Part shown: positions 20,887 to 30,024 of the stretch, piece after piece
Layout: every line of letters starts with the position of its first letter
How positions within the stretch are numbered: position 1 is the first letter of the stretch
Source: a virus
Virus record (IMG/VR): IMGVR_UViG_3300009152_000132
Coordinates: 1-31,319 of that record
Direction: 5' to 3' (one strand)
Length of the DNA: 31,319 bases
Notes under the pieces: model-generated
Database searches by the model: none
Seen by the model: the letters and a program-made list of their open reading frames with translations, nothing else
Told to the model about the DNA's origin: nothing
Program-made: the position numbers and the translations under genes

Positions 20887-21669
20887 CTATAAACTATTCA
20901 AAATCTTTCTTGATACCTTTTCTACATCTCTCATGTTACGTTCACCAAGAATAACTACTGCATAATGCTCACCGTTCTTAGTAACAAACATTGTTAGACA
21001 TTTACCAGCTGGGTTAGTATATCCAGTCTTGGATATCTCTATCTCATCATACTCGTTGAGTAAGTGAAAGTTAGTATTGCTTACAGTTATCACTCTATAG
21101 CTACTAAACGTCTTTGCTTTCTTTTTCTTCTTTACTGGTACATTCTTTGCAGCCGGCTCCACCAATACAAAGCTGGTCATTGAAGCAATCTGTTTAATTT
21201 TAGGGTAGGTCGAAGCATAATACAACAGTTTTGTAAGATCTTTTGCTGTACTTTGATTGTGTGGACTAAGACCAGAAGGATCATCGTAGGTAGTGTGAGC
21301 CATGCTCAAGAACTTTGCTGTGATGTTCATGTGCTGAATAAAAACATCCCTACCACCAGGAAAGCTTTTTGCAAGTGCCTCTGCAGCATTGTTATCACTC
21401 TTAATTAACAGCAAAGACATCAACTCATCTCTTGATCTTTGTTTAGCTGGGACACCTTTGAATCCTTTGTAAGTAACCTTTTCATCTAAACTAACGTTAC
21501 TTTCAAGAATGATAAGTGCAGTCATCAACTTGGTAACACTAGCTATTGGTCTTACCTTATCAGATCCTTCATCTATTACAGCTTCATTTCTTGTGTAGTT
21601 GTAAACGTACTGAGTTGCTGCTAATACATTAGTACTCAGTAGCGCAAAGGAAAGAATTAGTGCTTTCAT
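20887..21669 (-). CDS. D-alanyl-D-alanine carboxypeptidase-like protein (S11)
   Basis: 260 residues. A signal peptide (MKALILSFALLSTNVLA, cut after about residue 17) sends it to the periplasm. All three penicillin-binding motifs are present: S44-V-T-K47, S91-D-N93 and K214-T-G216. It is about the size of the catalytic domain of PbpG/DacA without the C-terminal anchor domain. It would trim peptidoglycan stem peptides or crosslinks in the host. Phage copies are uncommon; roles in superinfection resistance, wall remodelling or lysis timing are all inference. It ends with TAG, showing that TAG is a genuine stop in this genome. Confidence 0.92.
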   Translation of the reverse strand: MKALILSFALLSTNVLAATQYVYNYTRNEAVIDEGSDKVRPIASVTKLMTALIILESNVSLDEKVTYKGFKGVPAKQRSRDELMSLLLIKSDNNAAEALAKSFPGGRDVFIQHMNITAKFLSMAHTTYDDPSGLSPHNQSTAKDLTKLLYYASTYPKIKQIASMTSFVLVEPAAKNVPVKKKKKAKTFSSYRVITVSNTNFHLLNEYDEIEISKTGYTNPAGKCLTMFVTKNGEHYAVVILGERNMRDVEKVSRKILNSL

Positions 21670-21956: not shown

Positions 21957-22032
21957 TGGCTGCTCAACCTGGGCTCGAACCAGGGACAAACGGATTAACA
22001 GTCCGTTGCTCTACCAACTGAGCTACGGAGCA
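21957..22032 (-). tRNA. tRNA-Asn (GTT)
   Basis: D-arm GCTC/GAGC, anticodon stem ACGGA/TCCGT with loop CTGTTAA (anticodon GTT), T-arm CCTGG-TTCGAGC-CCAGG, discriminator G and an encoded CCA. The acceptor TGCTCCG/TTGAGCA has one C-T mismatch and one G-T wobble near the inner end. Confidence 0.93.
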
Positions 22033-22185
22033 ATAATTAATTGGCCGGTGTAGACACATCAAGGAATCACCCTCTCCCGCTACTCCGTTTACTACAAACA
22101 ACCGTTCACTAATTCCCGATTGATCGTCGGTTTTCGTTAATACTAGGTCGTCTAGTCGTCCTTCCCACTGGACTCTGCTCCTACC
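22033..22185 (-). other. Unassigned spacer with tRNA-like pieces
   Basis: No protein-coding gene is visible. On the minus strand a D-arm-like hairpin GTCC-AGTGGGAA-GGAC is followed by ACTAG-ACGAC-CTAGT and by CCGA-CGATCAA-TCGG, the order of arms in a tRNA. A canonical TTCGA T-loop and a pairing acceptor are missing, so it could be a decayed tRNA or a stable phage RNA like T4 RNA C/D. Low confidence. Confidence 0.3.
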
Positions 22186-22254
22186 AAATTAAAGTGCACT
22201 ACTTTCTCTTTATGTTCCACGCCTAGGTTCGTGTACGGCAATGCACTTTAATTT
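22186..22254 (-). ncRNA. Putative structured RNA element A (long-stem type)
   Basis: A perfect 13-bp inverted repeat (AAATTAAAGTGCA / TGCACTTTAATTT) encloses 43 bases that hold an inner hairpin CACG-AACCTAGG-CGTG. It lies four bases from element B, within the tRNA cluster. A perfect arm with no T run argues against a terminator. I infer an RNA because it sits inside the tRNA transcript; no known family is recognised. Confidence 0.5.
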
Positions 22255-22258
22255 AGTA

Positions 22259-22364
22259 CCATATTGAAGCACACTATACGATAGGTTTAGGTCTGCTTCT
22301 ATATCCTATCACGGCATAGTATGAAGTTATCTCTAGACCTTGGCCGTAATGTGCTTTAATATGG
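22259..22364 (-). ncRNA. Putative double-pseudoknot RNA element B
   Basis: The outer arms CCATATTAAAGCACA and TGTGCTTCAATATGG pair over 15 positions with one mismatch. Inside, on the minus strand, three helices interleave in the order a-b-a'-c-b'-c': ACGGC with GCCGT, AGGTCT with AGACCT, and GATAGG with CCTATC. This is a nested double pseudoknot. The 5' arm begins with the encoded CCA of tRNA-Glu, so processing of the tRNA 3' end would free the element. Family and function unknown. Confidence 0.6.
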
Positions 22365-22436
22365 CACACCGTAGGAGAATCGAACTCCTCTTCCATCCGT
22401 GAAAGGGATGTGTCCTAACCGATAGACGAACGGTGC
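22362..22436 (-). tRNA. tRNA-Glu (TTC)
   Basis: Acceptor GCACCGT/ACGGTGT (G-T at the first pair), D-arm GTC/GAC with GG in the loop, anticodon stem CATCC/GGATG with loop CTTTCAC (anticodon TTC), T-arm AGGAG-TTCGATT-CTCCT, discriminator G and an encoded CCA shared with the first bases of element B. Confidence 0.93.
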
Positions 22437-22444
22437 AACAAACT

Positions 22445-22529
22445 TGGTGGGGATGGAAGGAATCGAACCTCCTCACCCGAAAGAACTGATTTACAGTCAG
22501 CCGCCACTCTCCTACTTAGCCGCATCCCC
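22445..22529 (-). tRNA. tRNA-Tyr (GTA)
   Basis: 85 bases with a long variable arm as expected for bacterial tRNA-Tyr. Acceptor GGGGATG/CATCCCC, anticodon stem GCTGA/TCAGT with loop CTGTAAA (anticodon GTA), discriminator A and an encoded CCA. Confidence 0.93.
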
Positions 22530-22535
22530 ATTTTC

Positions 22536-22958
22536 TTACGCTACATCTTCGTAGCTTTCTTCATCTTCATAGAAGTCATCATGTGGATCAGTATTAATGA
22601 TAACATCACCAAATACAATCAGACCATCTTCGTATCGTACTTCAAAGTCTCTAGCAAACTCAACTTCGTTGATGTATGTATTATCTTCACCCTTATCCCA
22701 CATCTCTACAGGAATACATGCAAGACAACCAGCATCCACGCCATACTTGAAACCATTACCATCACGATACAATCCATCACCGTACTTGGTACTGAATACA
22801 GCAAAGAACTTTCCTGATTGCTTATCAGCCATTATACCACCACGATCAACAGCCTGATACATGAAGAAGTCTGTTTCTTTCAGTAATCTATCGTACGTAG
22901 CATAACTCAGTACATAACAGGGGTCTGCAATTACATACTTACCGGCAGCTAATTTCAT
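22536..22958 (-). CDS. Conserved phage protein with DPCYV motif
   Basis: 140 residues. GKYVIADPCYVL (6-17), KFFAVFSTKYGDGLYRD and YGVDAGCLACIPVEMW belong to a phage family of unknown function resembling DUF4241-type proteins. The C-terminus is very acidic. A good sigma70-type promoter precedes it and the tRNA cluster follows 7 bases after its stop, so tRNAs may be cotranscribed with it. Confidence 0.7.
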   Translation of the reverse strand: MKLAAGKYVIADPCYVLSYATYDRLLKETDFFMYQAVDRGGIMADKQSGKFFAVFSTKYGDGLYRDGNGFKYGVDAGCLACIPVEMWDKGEDNTYINEVEFARDFEVRYEDGLIVFGDVIINTDPHDDFYEDEESYEDVA

Positions 22959-22987
22959 ATAATATCCTTTATCAAGTTAACAAAGAT

Positions 22988-23016
22988 ATTATCTCATATT
23001 GGTGAAATAAAGTCAA
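22988..23016 (-). promoter_or_regulatory. Sigma70-type early promoter
   Basis: TTGACT (23016-23011), TTATTT at the start of a 17-base spacer, then GATAAT (22993-22988). It faces the gene starting at 22958 and very likely the tRNA cluster behind it. Confidence 0.8.
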
Positions 23017-23041
23017 CAGCTAAAACACCGCATATAATGCG

Positions 23042-23227
23042 TTATTTTTTGATCAGTGGATTGTCAATAGGTTCATCTATGTAAGCACCCATCTCTTCAC
23101 TGATCCTCATCATTTCTTGTAGTGCTTTCTCTTGGTCTGCCTTCTTTTTAAAGATTGCATCCCAGTTGTTATCATACTCATCAATTGAGATGGTGATTGG
23201 TCTTGGTTTACTACCTTTGCCGCTCAT
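23042..23227 (-). CDS. Conserved small phage protein (SGKGSKPRP type)
   Basis: 61 residues. The N-terminus MSGKGSKPRPITISIDEYDNNWDAIF is a well-known small phage protein signature found in many tailed phages. The start has a GGAGGATAT ribosome site. Function unknown. It follows the metallophosphoesterase gene by 12 bases. Confidence 0.75.
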   Translation of the reverse strand: MSGKGSKPRPITISIDEYDNNWDAIFKKKADQEKALQEMMRISEEMGAYIDEPIDNPLIKK

Positions 23228-23239
23228 ATATCCTCCACA

Positions 23240-23842
23240 TTACCTTCTAAAGTCAGTCATACCACCTTGCTCTTTGATTCTGATTTTAACATCCTCAAGT
23301 GAGATGGGTGTAAAGTCAATTTGTTCAACACTAACATTAAAGTACCTTGGATCAATAACTTCTTTCTCCACTGTGTATGGTCTAGGATCAAAAGGTTCAG
23401 GAGCATGCTCTTCAACCTTTATCTTCTTCATTACACGGTTGCTGTGAAGGTGACCATGAATGTTAACACCAAACCTAGCAATGCTTTCTTCGTGTACAGG
23501 AATGTGACTCATGATCATTCCGTTCAAAACATGGTATCCTCTAATATCTCTAAAGTGTGGCGTGTAATCTTCTAGTTTAAAGATATCATGGTTGCCCTTG
23601 ATTAGAACTTTACTACCATTCAACCTGTGAAGAGTGCTTAGAGCTTTCCTATTAATTACAACATCTCCAAGATGGTACACCTTATCGTTTGGTTTGACAA
23701 CAGAGTTCCATCTCTTGACCATGTCCTCATCCATCTCTTCTGGAGTATCCCAAGGTCGAAGTTTGGTACCATCATTTCGAAGGAAATGGCAGACACCAGC
23801 GTGACCAAAATGTGTATCGCTAACTAAAAATATGTTTGCCAT
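23240..23842 (-). CDS. Calcineurin-like metallophosphoesterase
   Basis: 200 residues. Metal-binding motifs in order: D9-T-H11 (VSDTHFGH), H57-LGDVV, KGNHD, a lone His in IMSHIPVH and GHLHS near residue 150. The family contains phosphodiesterases and phosphatases; the substrate is unknown. Start ATG has a GGAGG ribosome site and comes directly after a terminator, yet no promoter is obvious between them, so some readthrough is likely. Confidence 0.9.
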   Translation of the reverse strand: MANIFLVSDTHFGHAGVCHFLRNDGTKLRPWDTPEEMDEDMVKRWNSVVKPNDKVYHLGDVVINRKALSTLHRLNGSKVLIKGNHDIFKLEDYTPHFRDIRGYHVLNGMIMSHIPVHEESIARFGVNIHGHLHSNRVMKKIKVEEHAPEPFDPRPYTVEKEVIDPRYFNVSVEQIDFTPISLEDVKIRIKEQGGMTDFRR

Positions 23843-23856
23843 CCTTACCTCCTTAA

Positions 23857-23882
23857 TAAAAAAACCCGAGTGTTACTCGGGT
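23857..23882 (-). terminator. Rho-independent terminator overlapping a stop codon
   Basis: ACCCGAGT and ACTCGGGT form an 8-bp stem with a three-base loop followed by TTTTTTT on the minus strand. The TAA stop of the 41-residue gene (23875-23873) lies in the stem-loop itself. Confidence 0.92.
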
Positions 23883-23998
23883 CTGTATGTATACTTATCC
23901 TTACGCGTGTATGTCTTCTTTGAATCAACAACACGCATTCGGTACTTCGGTGTACGAAGATCCTTAGCTACTGCATTAGGTTTTCTTTCCCTTTTCAT
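23873..23998 (-). CDS. 41-residue basic phage protein
   Basis: The product starts MKRERKPNAVAKDLRTPKYR and ends KDKYTYRPE; it is very basic. Similar tiny proteins (KPNxVAKxLRTPKYRxRVV) are common in T4-like and other tailed phages. The start overlaps the 3' end of the lipoprotein gene by 23 bases, with an AAAGGC-type site upstream; the stop lies inside the terminator stem. Function unknown; the charge suggests nucleic acid binding. Confidence 0.75.
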   Translation of the reverse strand: MKRERKPNAVAKDLRTPKYRMRVVDSKKTYTRKDKYTYRPE

Positions 23999-24515
23999 TT
24001 AAAGCCTCATCTAAGTCTTTGAATTGATCGTCTCTGTCCTTTGGATTCCTACGAAGACCATCAAACAGCTTACGACCTTGGTCAGCTGACATCTTCAGCA
24101 TAACAAAAGCTCGGAACCCACCATCCTCTTTAGCTACCACTAACTTCTCTCTCGTGTACATTGAAAGAGCTTGGTTAGTTACTTGCTTAGATACACGATC
24201 CACTTCACGATCTATATCTTTCATCTTACTACCACTATCTTCTTTCAAGCTCTCACGCATCAAAGATTCAATCTTAACTCCGATACGATTAGCAAGCTCC
24301 ACTCGAGCGTTCATCATTGCTTTATCAATTGCAAACTGCATATCTTTTGATGTATCAGTAGCAGTGACCACAATCTCATTATCAGTCTTAACTGGTTCAG
24401 CAGCAAACCAATCTGGTACAGTTCCTTTTGATGGAGGTATCTCGACCATTTTAGAACTAGATGCACATCCTGTCAAAGCCATTGAAATGGCCATCATAAT
24501 ATAAAGTTTCTTCAT
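23976..24515 (-). CDS. Putative outer-membrane lipoprotein
   Basis: 179 residues from the ATG at 24515. MKKLYIMMAISMALTGCASS is a lipoprotein signal with the lipobox L-T-G-C (Cys about residue 17). The mature part (PDWFAAEP, ATDTSKDMQFAIDKAMMNARVELANRIGVKIES) resembles LPP20-type lipoproteins. An upstream in-frame ATG would bury the signal, so the later start is chosen; it follows the previous stop by one base. Phage lipoproteins can block superinfection; that is inference. Confidence 0.78.
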   Translation of the reverse strand: MKKLYIMMAISMALTGCASSSKMVEIPPSKGTVPDWFAAEPVKTDNEIVVTATDTSKDMQFAIDKAMMNARVELANRIGVKIESLMRESLKEDSGSKMKDIDREVDRVSKQVTNQALSMYTREKLVVAKEDGGFRAFVMLKMSADQGRKLFDGLRRNPKDRDDQFKDLDEALNEKGKKT

Positions 24516-24516
24516 G

Positions 24517-25173
24517 TTAATCCCATAAATTTTGATAATATTTGCCAAAGAGCCTGAAGCCGTTAGTTATACGGTCCTGAACTTTCTGACGTGCTTCCCA
24601 ATCACAGGTACGGTCACCTGTATTACTCATAGTATACACCTTTTCAGATTTGTTTGTCAACGGGTTAGTATACTCTTCATCAGTTTCAGTCCACTTAGTC
24701 TCACCCCATTCACCTGACCAAAACTGGTCATCCCAATCTTCGTTGAGCTCACTCTCAAAAGCAAATATCATTTCACCCATTGCCCAATCCCACCGTTTAA
24801 AGTGGTTATCATCAGTATCCCACTCATCTTTCTTTGGTGGAGCTGATGTACTTTTGAGTTCATCAGGTACATCTGTATCATCCACCAAAGGAGATCCATG
24901 CTTAGTCTTTTGAAGCTGCTTTAACATTGGTAGAATAATATGAGCTAACGTATGATCCATTGACCATGTATCCCATGGATCAATCCTAACCTTGATCTTT
25001 TGTTTCCTGTGCTTTTCTATCCACCAACACAACGACATCAAACCAGGAATATTATAAATCCATTCACCAAGGGTATATACGCGATTATCGTTCCTGTCCA
25101 TCCAGAACAAGATCTTCTCAGCAATCTGATAAGGACCTATCCAGTTTCTGTACGGTCCAATATGTACTTTCAT
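24517..25173 (-). CDS. Conserved phage protein of unknown function (IGPYRNWIGPYQ type)
   Basis: 218 residues, rich in Trp, Asp and His. The start MKVHIGPYRNWIGPYQIAEK and the DRVYTLGEW segment mark a family common in tailed phages. No catalytic motif is clear. The start overlaps the stop of the 48-residue membrane protein in an ATGA arrangement. Confidence 0.75.
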   Translation of the reverse strand: MKVHIGPYRNWIGPYQIAEKILFWMDRNDNRVYTLGEWIYNIPGLMSLCWWIEKHRKQKIKVRIDPWDTWSMDHTLAHIILPMLKQLQKTKHGSPLVDDTDVPDELKSTSAPPKKDEWDTDDNHFKRWDWAMGEMIFAFESELNEDWDDQFWSGEWGETKWTETDEEYTNPLTNKSEKVYTMSNTGDRTCDWEARQKVQDRITNGFRLFGKYYQNLWD

Positions 25174-25316
25174 ACGTCCCCTCTAACTAACCAATCAATG
25201 ATTAAGACTGCAACTAATAGCATAACTACAACCTCAACCAAAGTAAAGCGTTTACGAAGTTGGTATTCCCAATCGTATCCTAGTAGCTTTTCATACCAAC
25301 GTTCAATTATTTTCAT
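25170..25316 (-). CDS. 48-residue single-pass membrane protein
   Basis: MKIIERWYEKLLGYDWEYQL starts the product; a hydrophobic stretch VEVVVMLLVAVLIIDWLV (27-44) near the C-terminus follows a basic segment, so the N-terminus should stay inside. It overlaps the genes on both sides (14 and 4 bases), as is normal here. Unknown function. Confidence 0.6.
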   Translation of the reverse strand: MKIIERWYEKLLGYDWEYQLRKRFTLVEVVVMLLVAVLIIDWLVRGDV

Positions 25317-25734
25317 AATCAATCTCGTTAATGAATTTCATTTTCTCATCCTCACTCCAAGAGGATAGGTAACCATTATCTTTATTAAATAATTCTAGGT
25401 ACTCTTCCTTAGTAATTTTTCGAGCATCGAATGCATTAACATCAAGATGCTTCTGACTAAACTCTTTAAGAGAATCACCACCCATTACTACCTCATCATA
25501 TGCATGAGACTCTTCCTTGGCTCGTACAACATATCTTATGTGAAATATGCTGTAACAATCAACCATGTACAGATCACCTTCGGCTTTTGTTAGACTGTAG
25601 GATCCGTCTTTGAGGTCGGTCCACTTTAACTCATCCCCAATTTTAAATCCACTGCCTTCTAGGATTTCATCATTAAGTTCGATATAAAGTTCACCGTTCT
25701 CGTTTTCTTTAACAGGTAATGTCCACTTCTTCAT
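25303..25734 (-). CDS. AbrB/MazE-like protein with C-terminal extension
   Basis: 143 residues. The first 50 (LPVKENENGELYIELNDEIL, then GFKIGDELKW and YSLTK) follow the swapped-hairpin AbrB/MazE DNA-binding pattern. The remainder (ESHAYDEVVMGGDSLKEFSQ...) is an unrecognised acidic domain. The GAGGAG ribosome site lies directly after structured element C, so expression may be controlled by that RNA. Confidence 0.6.
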   Translation of the reverse strand: MKKWTLPVKENENGELYIELNDEILEGSGFKIGDELKWTDLKDGSYSLTKAEGDLYMVDCYSIFHIRYVVRAKEESHAYDEVVMGGDSLKEFSQKHLDVNAFDARKITKEEYLELFNKDNGYLSSWSEDEKMKFINEIDYENN

Positions 25735-25748
25735 ACATTCTCCTCAAA

Positions 25749-25826
25749 TTATATTGAAACACACTACCCTAGATAAGTCTTTGGGACGGACTATACACCG
25801 TATATTCGAAGTGTGTTTCAATATAA
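25749..25826 (-). ncRNA. Putative structured leader RNA element C
   Basis: Perfect 17-bp inverted arms (TTATATTGAAACACACT / AGTGTGTTTCAATATAA) enclose 44 bases. Inside, ACGG and CCGT pair, and CCC/GGG plus AGT/ACT could interleave in the same order as element B, though these are short. It lies about 14 bases before the start of the AbrB-like gene and directly after a GAAA-capped hairpin. Its position suggests cis control; function unknown. Confidence 0.5.
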
Positions 25827-25848
25827 GAAGTAGGGTTTCCCCTACTTC
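25827..25848 (-). terminator. GNRA-capped hairpin after HTH gene
   Basis: GAAGTAGGG and CCCTACTTC form a 9-bp stem with a GAAA tetraloop three bases after the stop of the HTH gene. TTATATT follows, a weak T run, so it may be a terminator, a stability hairpin, or part of the structured leader with element C. Confidence 0.6.
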
Positions 25849-26878: not shown

Positions 26879-27442
26879 TTACGCTGCGTAATGGAGATTA
26901 GTAGCCAAAAGATATTTGGAATTTGATAACGGTTTTTCACCTGTGTGCGGGAAAAACCAGTTGGGAGGGAATATAAGAAGGGAGCCCTTTTTTGGTTTGA
27001 ACGATAATCCAAGGTTAGGGAAAGTAGTCTCACCACCTTCTTCTACGTCATTGAGATAACAAAAGAGGTTCAAGAATCTTGAGCTACTAGCTTTGTCACC
27101 AATATCAACATGAAGTTTAAACTCATCATGATCATTCACCTCATACTTCTTGAGTCTGATTAATTCAAATGAATAATCTTCTGGAAAGAATTCGCGGAGA
27201 CCAACCTCTGTTGCATACTTCTGTGCATGATTGTGAAACATGAATGCAACTGACTTGTTAATGTTGTTATAAAGTTCTTCGTCAGATATACCAGTAAAAT
27301 CCAACTTGGTGAAGTTGGGGGCACCTTCGTTATCGTACCGCTCAGCTACTTCTTTATTCTCTTCAAAGAACTTAATGAAGAAGTCACAGTAGTCGTTAGG
27401 AAGTACGTTGTCGTAACACTTGACCAAGTTGGATAGATTCAT
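26879..27442 (-). CDS. 2OG-Fe(II) oxygenase (prolyl hydroxylase type)
   Basis: 187 residues from the ATG at 27442, the first after the upstream stop. The iron triad is H111-V-D113 and H166, and K177 fits the 2-oxoglutarate carboxylate ligand. LFCYLNDVEEGGETTFP and KPKKGSLLIFPPNW are typical of the prolyl-4-hydroxylase branch abundant in marine T4-like phages. The substrate (protein side chain or nucleobase) is unknown. Confidence 0.9.
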   Translation of the reverse strand: MNLSNLVKCYDNVLPNDYCDFFIKFFEENKEVAERYDNEGAPNFTKLDFTGISDEELYNNINKSVAFMFHNHAQKYATEVGLREFFPEDYSFELIRLKKYEVNDHDEFKLHVDIGDKASSSRFLNLFCYLNDVEEGGETTFPNLGLSFKPKKGSLLIFPPNWFFPHTGEKPLSNSKYLLATNLHYAA

Positions 27443-27449
27443 ATTATTT

Positions 27450-27680
27450 TTAAGGTTTAGGTGGAAGGTCAATGTAAGTACCCCATGGAAGCCTCAGTGC
27501 AATATCAACAGTATCTGGACCTCCTTTATCTACCCACATTTTTGAGATTGCTGTCATCATATATCCCTGCTTGATCTCATACCTGACTTCATATTGAGAG
27601 TGATCATATACACCATCAGGTACCCAAGGAAACTGCTTCCTCGTGTGTCTTGATTCAGGATCAAATGGAAGGTCACTCAT
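27450..27680 (-). CDS. Unknown small protein after queD
   Basis: 76 residues, rich in aromatic residues and Pro, predicted beta (SQYEVRYEIKQGYMMTAIS, LRLPWGTYIDLPP). Four-base ATGA overlap with queD. Conserved-looking, but no family is recognised. Confidence 0.6.
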   Translation of the reverse strand: MSDLPFDPESRHTRKQFPWVPDGVYDHSQYEVRYEIKQGYMMTAISKMWVDKGGPDTVDIALRLPWGTYIDLPPKP

Positions 27681-28207
27681 TCAAACAGATCCTCATTCCA
27701 TTCACGATGACCTTCACGGAAAGCCATGTTAGACTGTGTTTCACGCACCTCAACACGATAACACCACAAGCGCTTAGCCTCACCTATGCCCCAGTAGTCA
27801 GGGATGTATACGCCGTTTACATACTTGTATAACTGATCAGCAAGACCTTCACATCCAAGTTTAGGAAGGACAACAACCTTTGCTATGTTGCGACGCTGTG
27901 CTTCCTCATACCAATCAATGTTTGGATCATCTTCTGCAACTAGCAATGTGTGATCAAATTGATCTTGTAATACTTCTTTTAGTTCTTTCAATCCACCATA
28001 GTCAGCTGCCCAGTTACGAACATCTAGATCATTAGTGCCAAAATAAAACTTCATACTAAATGCATATCCATGAATAAGGTTGCAATGCGAGTCAGCACGA
28101 TGCTGACGGTATGCTACTGGAAATGCATCCACATACTCTTTAGTACTCGTGTACTTGTATGTGATAGGAGGATGTTTAGGTCCCAACGCTATGTCAAATA
28201 TGTCCAT
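27677..28207 (-). CDS. queD: 6-carboxy-tetrahydropterin synthase-like (QueD)
   Basis: 176 residues. The PTPS/QueD site region reads QHRADSHCNLIHGYAF (35-50): C42 is the catalytic cysteine and H46 a zinc ligand, but the usual HGH is HGY, so one zinc ligand is replaced by Y48 or taken over by H36/H41. FDHTLLV and CEGLADQLYKYV follow the family pattern. It makes 6-carboxy-tetrahydropterin from dihydroneopterin triphosphate (FolE product). It overlaps the phosphoribosyltransferase gene by 14 bases. Confidence 0.82.
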   Translation of the reverse strand: MDIFDIALGPKHPPITYKYTSTKEYVDAFPVAYRQHRADSHCNLIHGYAFSMKFYFGTNDLDVRNWAADYGGLKELKEVLQDQFDHTLLVAEDDPNIDWYEEAQRRNIAKVVVLPKLGCEGLADQLYKYVNGVYIPDYWGIGEAKRLWCYRVEVRETQSNMAFREGHREWNEDLFE

Positions 28208-28646
28208 TTTTTTCCCACCAAAAGTTAACCCACTCTTTATCTACATCTCGGTCTATTTGATTAAACCAAAAGTCTGGAACAACAAGATCCTGTGCTGTGT
28301 TATGCACAATACATGCCACACTAACATTAATCTCATCTTCCCTGCCCCAGATGTCCAACAGCTCTCGAATGGTTTTACCGCTGTCTATAATATCATCTAC
28401 AAGAAGTATTTGTTTTCCTTCAATGATTGATTGATAGAGATCCTCTGGACAGTATTTGTATCCAGTATCTCTCGTGGACCACTCCACAACCCGTAAAGGA
28501 ATCTCAAGCCTGTGAGACAGAACAGTAGAAGCAATAAGACCACCACGACTGATTCCAACCACATTGTCAAATCTGATCTCACTCTGTCGGACTTGCTGAT
28601 CAAGGCAAGCCATCGCTTTGAAGAAAACATCAATTGTTATGTCCAT
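28194..28646 (-). CDS. Phosphoribosyltransferase (Gpt-like)
   Basis: 150 residues. The PRPP-binding motif is ILLVDDIIDSGKTI (80-93), and VVGISRGGLIAS (29-40) is the PPi loop. The length and motif fit xanthine/hypoxanthine-guanine phosphoribosyltransferases. It may salvage guanine, perhaps released by the base exchange of DpdA; this link is inference from context. Located between queE and queD in one operon. Confidence 0.88.
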   Translation of the reverse strand: MDITIDVFFKAMACLDQQVRQSEIRFDNVVGISRGGLIASTVLSHRLEIPLRVVEWSTRDTGYKYCPEDLYQSIIEGKQILLVDDIIDSGKTIRELLDIWGREDEINVSVACIVHNTAQDLVVPDFWFNQIDRDVDKEWVNFWWEKNGHI

Positions 28647-28667
28647 AAAGTATTCTTTTCAAGTGTG

Positions 28668-29519
28668 CTATGTGCCCCACGCATTACGCCAAATGTCTAC
28701 CTGGAGACGAGGGCTATATCTCCAGCCACGTTTCATTGCCATTTCAGCTACTGCTTTGTAATTATTAAAATATAATTGATCAGTACCACCTACTGGCATC
28801 AAGTATATGTCGCTATCAATTCCTGCACCACGATACGCTTCAATAGCACGATCAATCTCATACATATCAGTTTCTTTGTCAACTACAAACTTAAAGTAAA
28901 CTTCTCCATACCATTGATACTCTTTCACCACATCGGGTAGAATTGCTTCTTCCCACTTCTCACCAGATGGACTCAACTTAGCGCTAACAGAAAAAATAAT
29001 CTCTGTATTACCCTTATAATGCTTTGAGTAATTATACAAGAACTTTTTGAAGTCCTCTGTTAGTCTCTGAGTACCATTGGTCTCAAACGTAATAGATTTG
29101 ATTCCCTTCATCTTACTATGCATTAACAAATCTTCATATGAACGTTGCCATCCAAGAAGTGGCTCTCCACCAGTAATAATAAGATGCTCGTTATTCCATT
29201 TGTTTTCAGGAAGCATGTTTGCAATAGTTTCTGCAATAACATCAGTATCTAATACTGGTGAGAGATGTTTGAACCTTGGATCCCAACTGGCATATGAATC
29301 ACATCCTGTATGAACTAAAGGTAGATCGTTATAAGTTTTGTACTGTGCAACATTGATTGCTATTGGCTCTCTCTCAACAGATTGTTGTCCTGTAGGCATA
29401 CCAAAGCCACTACACGTAAAGTTACATCCAAACGTCCGTAAAAACACACTAGGAACGCCTACATACTTGCCCTCACCCTGAAGTGAATAGAACAGCTCAG
29501 CTACTTTAATTTTACTCAT
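28668..29519 (-). CDS. queE: 7-carboxy-7-deazaguanine synthase-like radical SAM protein (QueE)
   Basis: 283 residues. LFYSLQGEGKYVGVPSVFLR and TGGEPLLGWQ are hallmarks of QueE. The iron-sulfur motif is unusual: C32-NFT-C36 is present, but the third cysteine expected at 39 is F; C73 in HTGCDSYASWDP is the best replacement. The protein is longer than the 210-220 residues of many QueE. It would form 7-carboxy-7-deazaguanine from 6-carboxy-tetrahydropterin. Start overlaps the deformylase gene by 8 bases. Confidence 0.87.
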   Translation of the reverse strand: MSKIKVAELFYSLQGEGKYVGVPSVFLRTFGCNFTCSGFGMPTGQQSVEREPIAINVAQYKTYNDLPLVHTGCDSYASWDPRFKHLSPVLDTDVIAETIANMLPENKWNNEHLIITGGEPLLGWQRSYEDLLMHSKMKGIKSITFETNGTQRLTEDFKKFLYNYSKHYKGNTEIIFSVSAKLSPSGEKWEEAILPDVVKEYQWYGEVYFKFVVDKETDMYEIDRAIEAYRGAGIDSDIYLMPVGGTDQLYFNNYKAVAEMAMKRGWRYSPRLQVDIWRNAWGT

Positions 29520-30024
29520 ATTCTGGCACCTTATAAGATTTTTGACGCTTGTTCTTTTGTCTCATTGCTTGATCGAAGTGAAACTTATTTGCCTTGAATG
29601 TAAAGTTAACACCATCAAGATGATCCATTTCATGTAATACACAACGTGCCGATATTCCGGTAAACTTATCCGTCTGTGCTTCACCAAATGAATCCATATA
29701 ACGAACACGAACTAACTTGGGACGCTTTATTTTAATGAAGAGATTTGGATAAGTCAAGCACCCTTCTTCCAACATAATTTGTTCAGTGGACACATCAGCA
29801 ATTACAGGATTAAACATTACCTTTGTTGGATTAGACCAAAGAACAAACGCTCTGTAAGGTAGCCCACATTGGTTGGCAGAAAGACCAATCCCCTTATAGT
29901 GAATCATAGTCTCAATAAGGTTGTTTGCTAGCTCGTGTGGATTGATTGGAGGATTGCTAAAGTTAAATCTCTCTAACTTTGTTCTGAGCATTGGATGATC
30001 TGGAGCAACTAAATCATATATCAT
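29512..30024 (-). CDS. def: Peptide deformylase
   Basis: 170 residues. All three motifs are present: GIGLSANQ (45-52), EEGCLTYP (86-93, metal ligand C89) and HEMDHLDG (131-138, with H131 and H135 as ligands and E132 as base). It removes the formyl group from new proteins. Phage versions are common in marine myoviruses and may speed host or phage protein turnover. The one-base contact with the gene 46 stop shows tight linkage. Confidence 0.95.
   Translation of the reverse strand: MIYDLVAPDHPMLRTKLERFNFSNPPINPHELANNLIETMIHYKGIGLSANQCGLPYRAFVLWSNPTKVMFNPVIADVSTEQIMLEEGCLTYPNLFIKIKRPKLVRVRYMDSFGEAQTDKFTGISARCVLHEMDHLDGVNFTFKANKFHFDQAMRQKNKRQKSYKVPEYE

What the first reader, a model, noticed from the sequence alone, without database searches (positions are those of the whole stretch)
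22186..25826. Three long-stem inverted-repeat elements, one with a double pseudoknot, in the tRNA cluster and a gene leader
Three intervals (22186-22254, 22259-22364, 25749-25826) each have near-perfect 13-17 bp outer arms sharing a TTGAAACACAC / TTAAAGTGCA-like theme and a 40-76 base core. In the middle one, three inner helices interleave in the order a-b-a'-c-b'-c', which is a double pseudoknot with 5-6 bp perfect helices. The third shows the same order with shorter helices and sits in the leader of an AbrB-like gene. I do not recognise a known ribozyme or riboswitch. They may be a new small RNA family, a phage regulator or a self-cleaving RNA.
Basis: partly seen in the sequence, partly recalled or inferred. 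Interest (0 to 1): 0.85.

Follow-up and report, generated by a model that had tools for sequence, protein, structure and literature searches.

The report
Swappable RNA cassettes beside phage tRNAs
T4-like viruses of freshwater and marine bacteria carry a large set of small structured RNAs, each closed by the same kind of long stem and fused to transfer-RNA or tmRNA genes, whose inner parts have been exchanged like cassettes between sites and between viruses; nothing of the kind was found in Rfam or in the papers searched.

Summary
All three stem elements are real. E1 and E2 follow tRNA-Glu in the tRNA cluster; E3 lies in a gene leader. The sense strand is minus, like the tRNAs. They belong to a phage RNA group absent from Rfam: 284 distinct elements in about 187 core clusters on 124 held sequences. 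The shared part is the closing stem (AUAUUGAARCACAUU...AGUGUGYUUCAAUAU), with a conserved U·G pair and many compensatory changes. E2's interleaved helices are two hairpins with 6-bp complementary loops (a kissing interaction). E3's loop contact is only 3 bp and not conserved. E1 is a single hairpin with a self-complementary loop.

The stem often starts exactly at a tRNA's CCA end. Relatives of all three window elements also sit in the excised loop of two-piece tmRNA genes. At six sites the flanks of two phages are over 90% identical while the cores are unrelated; identical cores also occur at unrelated sites. Cores are therefore exchangeable cassettes. Most likely tRNA/tmRNA processing releases them as small stable RNAs comparable to T4 RNAC/RNAD, whose function is unknown. 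An anti-defence role is plausible but untested; no expression data were available.

The parts
22186..22254 (-). E1: stem-closed RNA; hairpin CACG/CGUG at 22218-22233 with loop AACCUAGG (22222-22229) holding the self-complementary CCUAGG
   Evidence: relatives with covarying stems and self-complementary loops
22259..22364 (-). E2: stem-closed RNA directly 3' of tRNA-Glu; hairpin c (22343-22347 with 22311-22315), hairpin a (22305-22310 with 22280-22285), loop-loop helix b (22335-22340 with 22289-22294)
   Evidence: 10 members (the window and nine relatives)
25749..25826 (-). E3: stem-closed RNA in a gene leader; hairpin ACGG/CCGU (25798-25801 with 25786-25789), weaker second hairpin CCC/GGG (25783-25785 with 25767-25769)
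   Evidence: relatives
22362..22436 (-). tRNA-Glu(UUC); its CCA is the first part of the E2 stem
22445..22529 (-). tRNA-Tyr(GUA), neighbouring tRNA of the cluster, upstream of tRNA-Glu in the sense direction
21957..22032 (-). tRNA-Asn(GUU), downstream of E1 in the sense direction
25827..25848 (-). terminator-like hairpin GAAGUAGGGGAAACCCUACUUC directly before E3
25303..25734 (-). ORF of 143 aa whose ribosome-binding site and ATG follow E3; no Pfam match

Best explanation
E1, E2 and E3 are three members of a large system of exchangeable RNA cassettes in T4-like phages. Shown by sequence comparison: (1) each cassette is an RNA read from the tRNA strand, closed by a 13-25 bp stem whose inner part (RCACAUU/AGUGUGY, with a U·G pair next to the innermost pair) is conserved; (2) it sits directly after the CCA of a tRNA, in the excised intervening segment of a permuted two-piece tmRNA as an extension of the acceptor stem, elsewhere in the tRNA array, or more rarely in a leader; (3) the cores inside the stem are of very many types, several of them with covarying helices, and are exchanged as units between sites and between phages while stem and flanks stay. 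Inferred: the cassette is cut out of the tRNA or tmRNA precursor by the usual tRNA 5' and 3' processing and persists as a small, nearly blunt-ended stable RNA; the shared stem is both a processing and stability scaffold and the short homology through which phage recombination swaps cores. Inferred with less certainty: the cores act in trans during infection, most plausibly against host defence or on translation, which would explain their rapid turnover, the tRNA-like members and their place in an accessory tRNA array.
For: Family: 117 stretches in IMG/VR match a strict two-arm pattern; a near-equivalent pattern finds 0 in 84,980 bacterial and archaeal genomes. RNA-level stem: U·G at the second pair in 238 of 284 elements and compensatory pair types along the arms; in a count that the pattern did not bias, 21 G·U against 0 A·C, p about 1e-6. 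Position: of 85 elements within 15 nt of an upstream tRNA end, 76 start exactly 0 nt after it, and for 27 elements the next tRNA starts 1 nt after the scanned arm. In four long contigs the family-like elements lie in the tRNA region on the tRNA strand. tmRNA: 13 of 16 element-bearing records encode a permuted tmRNA, of beta-proteobacterial type in the five loci scanned; the intervening segment holds 19 core types in 36 distinct sequences, including E1-, E2- and E3-type cores. Exchange: flanks of 91-100% identity over 100 nt with unrelated cores at six sites, and 184 pairs of same core in unrelated flanks. Covariation. Same cores after different tRNAs.
Against: No expression or processing data exist here; release, stability and function are inferred. 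Averaged over 163 distinct cores the fold is only slightly better than shuffled (nested mean z -0.35; kissing-type mean z -0.42 with 22% in the best tenth), so some cores may be fillers. An A·C mismatch at the tenth stem pair in 46 of 284 elements is unexplained. No recombinase of the integrase or Y1 transposase families was found in 16 records, so the exchange route is open. A stem that pairs the CCA should hinder ordinary tRNA end processing.
Confidence: 0.7

Rival explanations
1. Processing spacers: only the stem matters, as a clamp that holds a tRNA 3' end and the following tRNA or tmRNA 5' end together for processing; the cores are neutral filler that drifts and recombines.
For: The stem is the shared part; in two phage records the tmRNA intervening segment is the stem with a 5-nt loop; average core folding is only slightly above shuffled.
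Against: The E2-type core is nearly invariant over 10 phages and five kinds of site while arms vary; cores covary and are re-used, up to 100% identical, at unrelated sites; E3 and the L214 element sit outside tRNA spacers.
Confidence: 0.2
2. Anti-defence decoys (a functional reading of the best explanation, not exclusive of it): cores imitate tRNA parts or other ligands and titrate host nucleases or defence sensors.
For: Rapid exchange and many types; phage tRNA arrays are themselves discussed as anti-defence (own knowledge); 18 of 284 cores carry a T-arm motif against 0.3 expected.
Against: Most cores show no tRNA feature; no target is known; purely inferred.
Confidence: 0.3
3. DNA-level mobile hairpins (MITE, REP, attC or IS200/IS605-like) without an RNA role.
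For: Inverted repeats, several copies per genome, cores that move.
Against: G·U without A·C on one strand; compensatory arm changes matched to the local tRNA or tmRNA acceptor sequence; strand nearly always that of the tRNAs; no integrase or Y1 transposase in 16 records; the core moves while the arms stay.
Confidence: 0.06
4. Riboswitch or self-cleaving ribozyme.
For: E2 is a three-way junction with kissing loops, the topology of some riboswitches (own knowledge).
Against: No Rfam match even at permissive thresholds beyond chance miRNA-like and snoRNA-like hits; the same core occurs after several different tRNAs and in tmRNA, not with one gene; no catalytic core is shared.
Confidence: 0.04
5. 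Decaying tRNA genes that kept a paired leader and trailer.
For: Some cores contain D-arm and T-arm remnants (L067 1181-1303).
Against: Only about 6% have a T-arm motif; E1, E2 and E3 have none and are conserved as types over many phages.
Confidence: 0.03

Closest known systems
T4 RNAC and RNAD (species 1 and 2 stable RNAs)
   Same: Small RNAs in the tRNA cluster of a T4-type phage; RNAD starts just after tRNA-Arg and RNAC follows, the same order as tRNA-Glu, E2, E1; RNAC has a T-arm. Classed as late RNAs and validated by Northern blot (PMC9697503); roles unknown (PMC3014915).
   Different: No long shared closing stem of this sequence, no known exchange of cores, different sequences and lengths (119 and 139 nt).
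Intervening segment of permuted (two-piece) tmRNA, RF04321/RF01850
   Same: E1-, E2- and E3-type cores occur there, in a stem that extends the acceptor stem.
   Different: Known as a sequence absent from mature tmRNA (PMC11915505); no report found of exchangeable structured RNAs there, nor of the same module after tRNA genes.
tRNA-precursor spacer RNAs that act in trans, such as 3'ETS-leuZ (own knowledge)
   Same: A spacer released from a tRNA precursor with a function in trans.
   Different: No stem of this kind, no cassette exchange, bacterial.
Bacterial Y RNAs / YrlA (own knowledge)
   Same: Terminal stem with variable inner modules, some tRNA-like.
   Different: No Ro60 (TROVE) gene in 16 element-bearing records.
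Integron gene cassettes (own knowledge)
   Same: Exchangeable units bounded by paired arms.
   Different: The units are RNAs, no integron-type integrase was found, and the arms enclose the unit instead of ending it.

Membership tests
T4 RNAC/RNAD-like stable RNAs | position directly 3' of a tRNA in the tRNA cluster, same strand | tested here: met
   (E2 and E1; E3 not)
T4 RNAC/RNAD-like stable RNAs | structural likeness to RNAC or RNAD (long closing stem around a core) | tested here: not met
   no closing stem of this type in the folds of RNAC or RNAD
T4 RNAC/RNAD-like stable RNAs | accumulates as a discrete stable RNA | not testable with these tools
   no transcript data
Permuted tmRNA intervening segment | lies between acceptor piece (CCA) and coding piece of a tmRNA gene | tested here: not met
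   no tmRNA in the window; met by relatives of all three types
Known Rfam family (riboswitch, ribozyme, sRNA) | covariance-model match at gathering score | tested here: not met
Y RNA / Ro60 system | TROVE-domain protein encoded with the RNA | tested here: not met
   0 of 16 records, positive control rings
Integron / attC cassettes | tyrosine integrase in the same genome | tested here: not met
   0 of 16 records, positive controls ring; records may be incomplete
REP/RAYT or IS200/IS605 hairpins | Y1 transposase in the same genome | tested here: not met
   0 of 16 records, positive controls ring; records may be incomplete
Intrinsic terminators | short G+C-rich stem followed by a U run | tested here: not met
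   none of the three elements is listed; only the hairpin 25827-25848 before E3 is
tRNA / tRNA-like RNA | cloverleaf or T-arm | tested here: not met
   E1-E3 are not found by ARAGORN or RF00005; 18 of 284 other cores have a T-arm motif

The most novel reading that the evidence does not exclude
T4-like phages maintain a shared, rapidly exchanged library of small structured RNAs, delivered by fusion to tRNA and tmRNA precursors and bounded by a common stem that serves as the exchange site; each phage carries a different hand of several cassettes that act in trans on host defences or translation, so this would be an RNA counterpart of gene-cassette systems.
Probability: 0.4. Interest if true: 0.95.

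Novelty: categorically new. Interest (0 to 1): 0.85.

Why it matters
Phage accessory functions are usually sought as proteins; here the exchanged units appear to be RNAs, so they would escape ordinary annotation. If the cores act in trans they form a large unexplored pool of phage RNA effectors (about 187 core clusters on 124 held sequences). The finding also gives a comparative handle on the long-unexplained T4 stable RNAs RNAC and RNAD, and adds a possible use for the permuted tmRNA of these phages: its intervening segment is a further place for the same cassettes.

Tried and rejected
Rfam at gathering and permissive thresholds: only tRNAs, tmRNAs, group I introns and chance hits. Annotated phage collection with the window, with the bare arms and with a whole RNA array: no clear relative of the cassettes; one 74% match of a stem-less array RNA in Limnohabitans phage DC31. 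Bacterial genomes: 0 hits with the tRNA-site pattern; one hit with the tmRNA-site pattern, on a contig that encodes a T4-type DNA polymerase fragment, so most likely a misbinned phage (reading of the translation by eye). Y RNA/Ro60, integron and REP/IS605 readings not supported, as the proteins are missing. Kissing helix in E3 rejected (3 bp, not kept). An extra E1-type scan gave no further members because its pattern was wrongly built. Literature: no match found; preprints and most subscription papers are not in the library. The papers read mention RNAC and RNAD as RNAs of unknown function.
Full report
CHECK OF THE OBSERVATION. The window is a 31,319-base IMG/VR record from a T4-like phage: DnaB-type helicase, gp43-type polymerase, clamp loader and SbcC-like subunit. 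Its polymerase is about 50% identical to those of marine cyanophages and up to 100% to other IMG/VR contigs. All named genes and all five tRNAs are on the minus strand. An independent inverted-repeat scan puts the three intervals among its four best repeats. With their cores they fold 4.8-5.2 sd below dinucleotide shuffles. E2 begins at the CCA end of tRNA-Glu, E1 follows four bases later, and E3 lies between a terminator-like hairpin and the ribosome-binding site of a 143-aa ORF.

THE DOUBLE PSEUDOKNOT. Read on the minus strand: c'(ACGGC), b'(AGGUCU), c(GCCGU), a'(GAUAGG), b(AGACCU), a(CCUAUC). This is two adjacent hairpins whose loops pair, inside a closing stem. Its three-helix energy of -33.4 compares with a shuffle mean of -21.2. 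The window and nine relatives keep all helices; 97.3% of cells pair against 94.8% in shuffles; six pairs change on both sides, four in the outer stem and two in helix a. The kissing helix itself never varies, so it is conserved but not proven by covariation. For E3 the loop contact is 3 bp and relatives do not keep it (by eye). Its hairpin ACGG/CCGU does covary (GCGG/CCGC, CUGG/CUAG, AUAG/CUAU in relatives), and the model of outer stem plus this hairpin gives 96.1% paired cells against 88.1% in shuffles with 9 two-sided pairs. E1 is a single hairpin in a closing stem. Its relatives replace the hairpin stem completely (GCCG/CGGC, GCUG/CAGC, GUUG/CAGC, GAAGC/GCUUC, against CACG/CGUG in E1), and all four loop variants hold a self-complementary 6-mer (CCGCGG, UCUAGA, UCCGGG with G·U ends, and CCUAGG in E1). 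The chance for a random 7-8 nt loop is about 0.12 each, so four of four suggests a kissing dimer, but this was noticed after the fact.

A LARGE FAMILY DEFINED BY THE STEM. A strict two-arm pattern finds 117 stretches in IMG/VR; a near-equivalent finds none in the 84,980 bacterial and archaeal genomes. Fuzzy scans of the held loci give 340 elements, 269 unique; a stem-based scan gives 284 unique elements in about 187 core clusters on 124 held sequences, where overlapping loci count apart. The sense consensus is AUAUUGAARCACAUU-core-AGUGUGYUUCAAUAU. The pair next to the innermost one is U·G in 238 of 284, and outer pairs show many alternative Watson-Crick types; because elements were selected for pairing, the informative part is the change of pair type, not the fraction paired. 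In a count that the search pattern could not bias, the seventh pair is A-U, G·U or G-C but never A·C (21 G·U against 0 A·C, p about 1e-6), which marks a stem selected as RNA on the tRNA strand. An A·C mismatch at the tenth pair in 46 of 284 remains unexplained.

FUSION TO tRNA AND tmRNA. Of 85 elements within 15 nt of an upstream tRNA, 76 start exactly 0 nt from its end, and for 27 elements the next tRNA starts one base after the scanned 3' arm. In four long contigs of 133-177 kb the family-like elements lie in the tRNA region on the tRNA strand; a few weak hits elsewhere are at the level of the reversed control. Thirteen of 16 element-bearing records encode a permuted tmRNA above the Rfam cut-off, of the beta-proteobacterial type in the five loci scanned, which suggests beta-proteobacterial hosts (inference). 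In these tmRNA genes the intervening segment is closed by the same kind of stem, here extending the acceptor stem through CCA. At this one site 36 distinct sequences carry 19 core types, among them E1-type (L291), E2-type (L207) and E3-type (L202, L203) cores. In two records the same segment is a bare hairpin with a 5-nt loop, so stem and core are separable.

EXCHANGE OF CORES. Flank comparison finds sites where two phages agree on both sides and differ in the core: L262/L004 (tmRNA, 0.97/0.99), L113/L042 at two sites (0.99/0.99 and 0.91/0.99), L227/L014 (0.94/0.95), L217/L223 (0.99/0.98) and L023/L042 (0.96/1.00) over 100 nt. In local alignments within 600 nt the agreement continues at 0.85-0.99, and the boundary falls at or within a few bases of the inner end of the stem. 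Conversely, 184 pairs share a core in unrelated flanks, some cores being identical; one core of contig G012 sits at a second site in L201. The E2-type core follows tRNA-Glu six times and also occurs after tRNA-Lys and tRNA-Arg, in a tmRNA and outside tRNAs; the E3-type core follows tRNA-Lys, tRNA-Leu and tRNA-Glu, lies in two tmRNAs and in the leader in this window.

HOW IT MOST LIKELY WORKS. Shown: an RNA-level stem, exact placement, covarying cores of several types, and exchange of cores. Inferred: normal tRNA 5' and 3' processing (perhaps helped by RNase III on the stem) releases a nearly blunt RNA, and the arms give the short homology for phage recombination; no integrase or Y1 transposase family member was found in 16 records. 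Inferred with less certainty: cores act in trans. The closest known parallels are T4 RNAD and RNAC, which follow tRNA-Arg in the same order, were validated by Northern blot (PMC9697503) and have no known role (PMC3014915). RNAC has a T-arm, as do 18 of 284 cores here against 0.3 expected. A decoy or anti-defence role fits the fast exchange but is untested. The strongest rival is that only the stem matters and the cores are filler. The near-invariance of the E2-type core in 10 phages at unrelated sites speaks against it for that type, whereas the weak average folding of all cores leaves room for it in others.

LIMITS. All relatives are metagenomic contigs, so exchange rests on assemblies, although several independent ones. 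No transcript data were available. The literature library lacks preprints and most subscription journals, so 'categorically new' means that no described system of this kind was found in it or in Rfam; a cautious reader may prefer 'new variant' of the T4 stable-RNA kind.

Noticed in passing
window 22033-22185: About 150 bases without a convincing gene between E1 and tRNA-Asn on the tRNA strand; may hold a further RNA without the stem motif.
   Followed up: no
L067 1-2661: An array of stem-closed RNAs and further unrecognised spacer RNAs with few recognisable tRNAs; one spacer RNA (1763-1850) is 74% identical to unannotated DNA of Limnohabitans phage DC31 (PQ492658).
   Followed up: partly
L032 10145-10239 and L109 5024-5133: Ordinary tRNA-Gly genes whose leader and trailer pair for a further 12-14 bp beyond the acceptor stem.
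   Followed up: partly
held loci, tenth stem pair: A·C mismatch on the sense strand in 46 of 284 elements, opposite in sign to the other wobbles.
   Followed up: partly
L041 1521 and 3022: Two cassettes of one phage carry the same sequence ACGATTGT in both hairpin loops, able to pair with each other through G·U pairs.
   Followed up: no
window 27299-27434: A 17-bp near-perfect inverted repeat inside the ORF 26879-27472 (2OG-Fe(II) oxygenase match), unrelated in sequence to E1-E3.
   Followed up: no
window 27677-30024: PTPS (QueD-like) and QueE-like genes next to phosphoribosyltransferase and peptide deformylase genes, reminiscent of phages that make 7-deazaguanine.
   Followed up: no
window 20887-21669: D-Ala-D-Ala carboxypeptidase (Peptidase_S11) gene beside the tRNA cluster.
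   Followed up: no
L321: Contig FZLS01000007 of a Rhodobacteraceae bin carries a T4-type DNA polymerase fragment and a permuted tmRNA with a cassette; probably a misbinned phage.
   Followed up: partly
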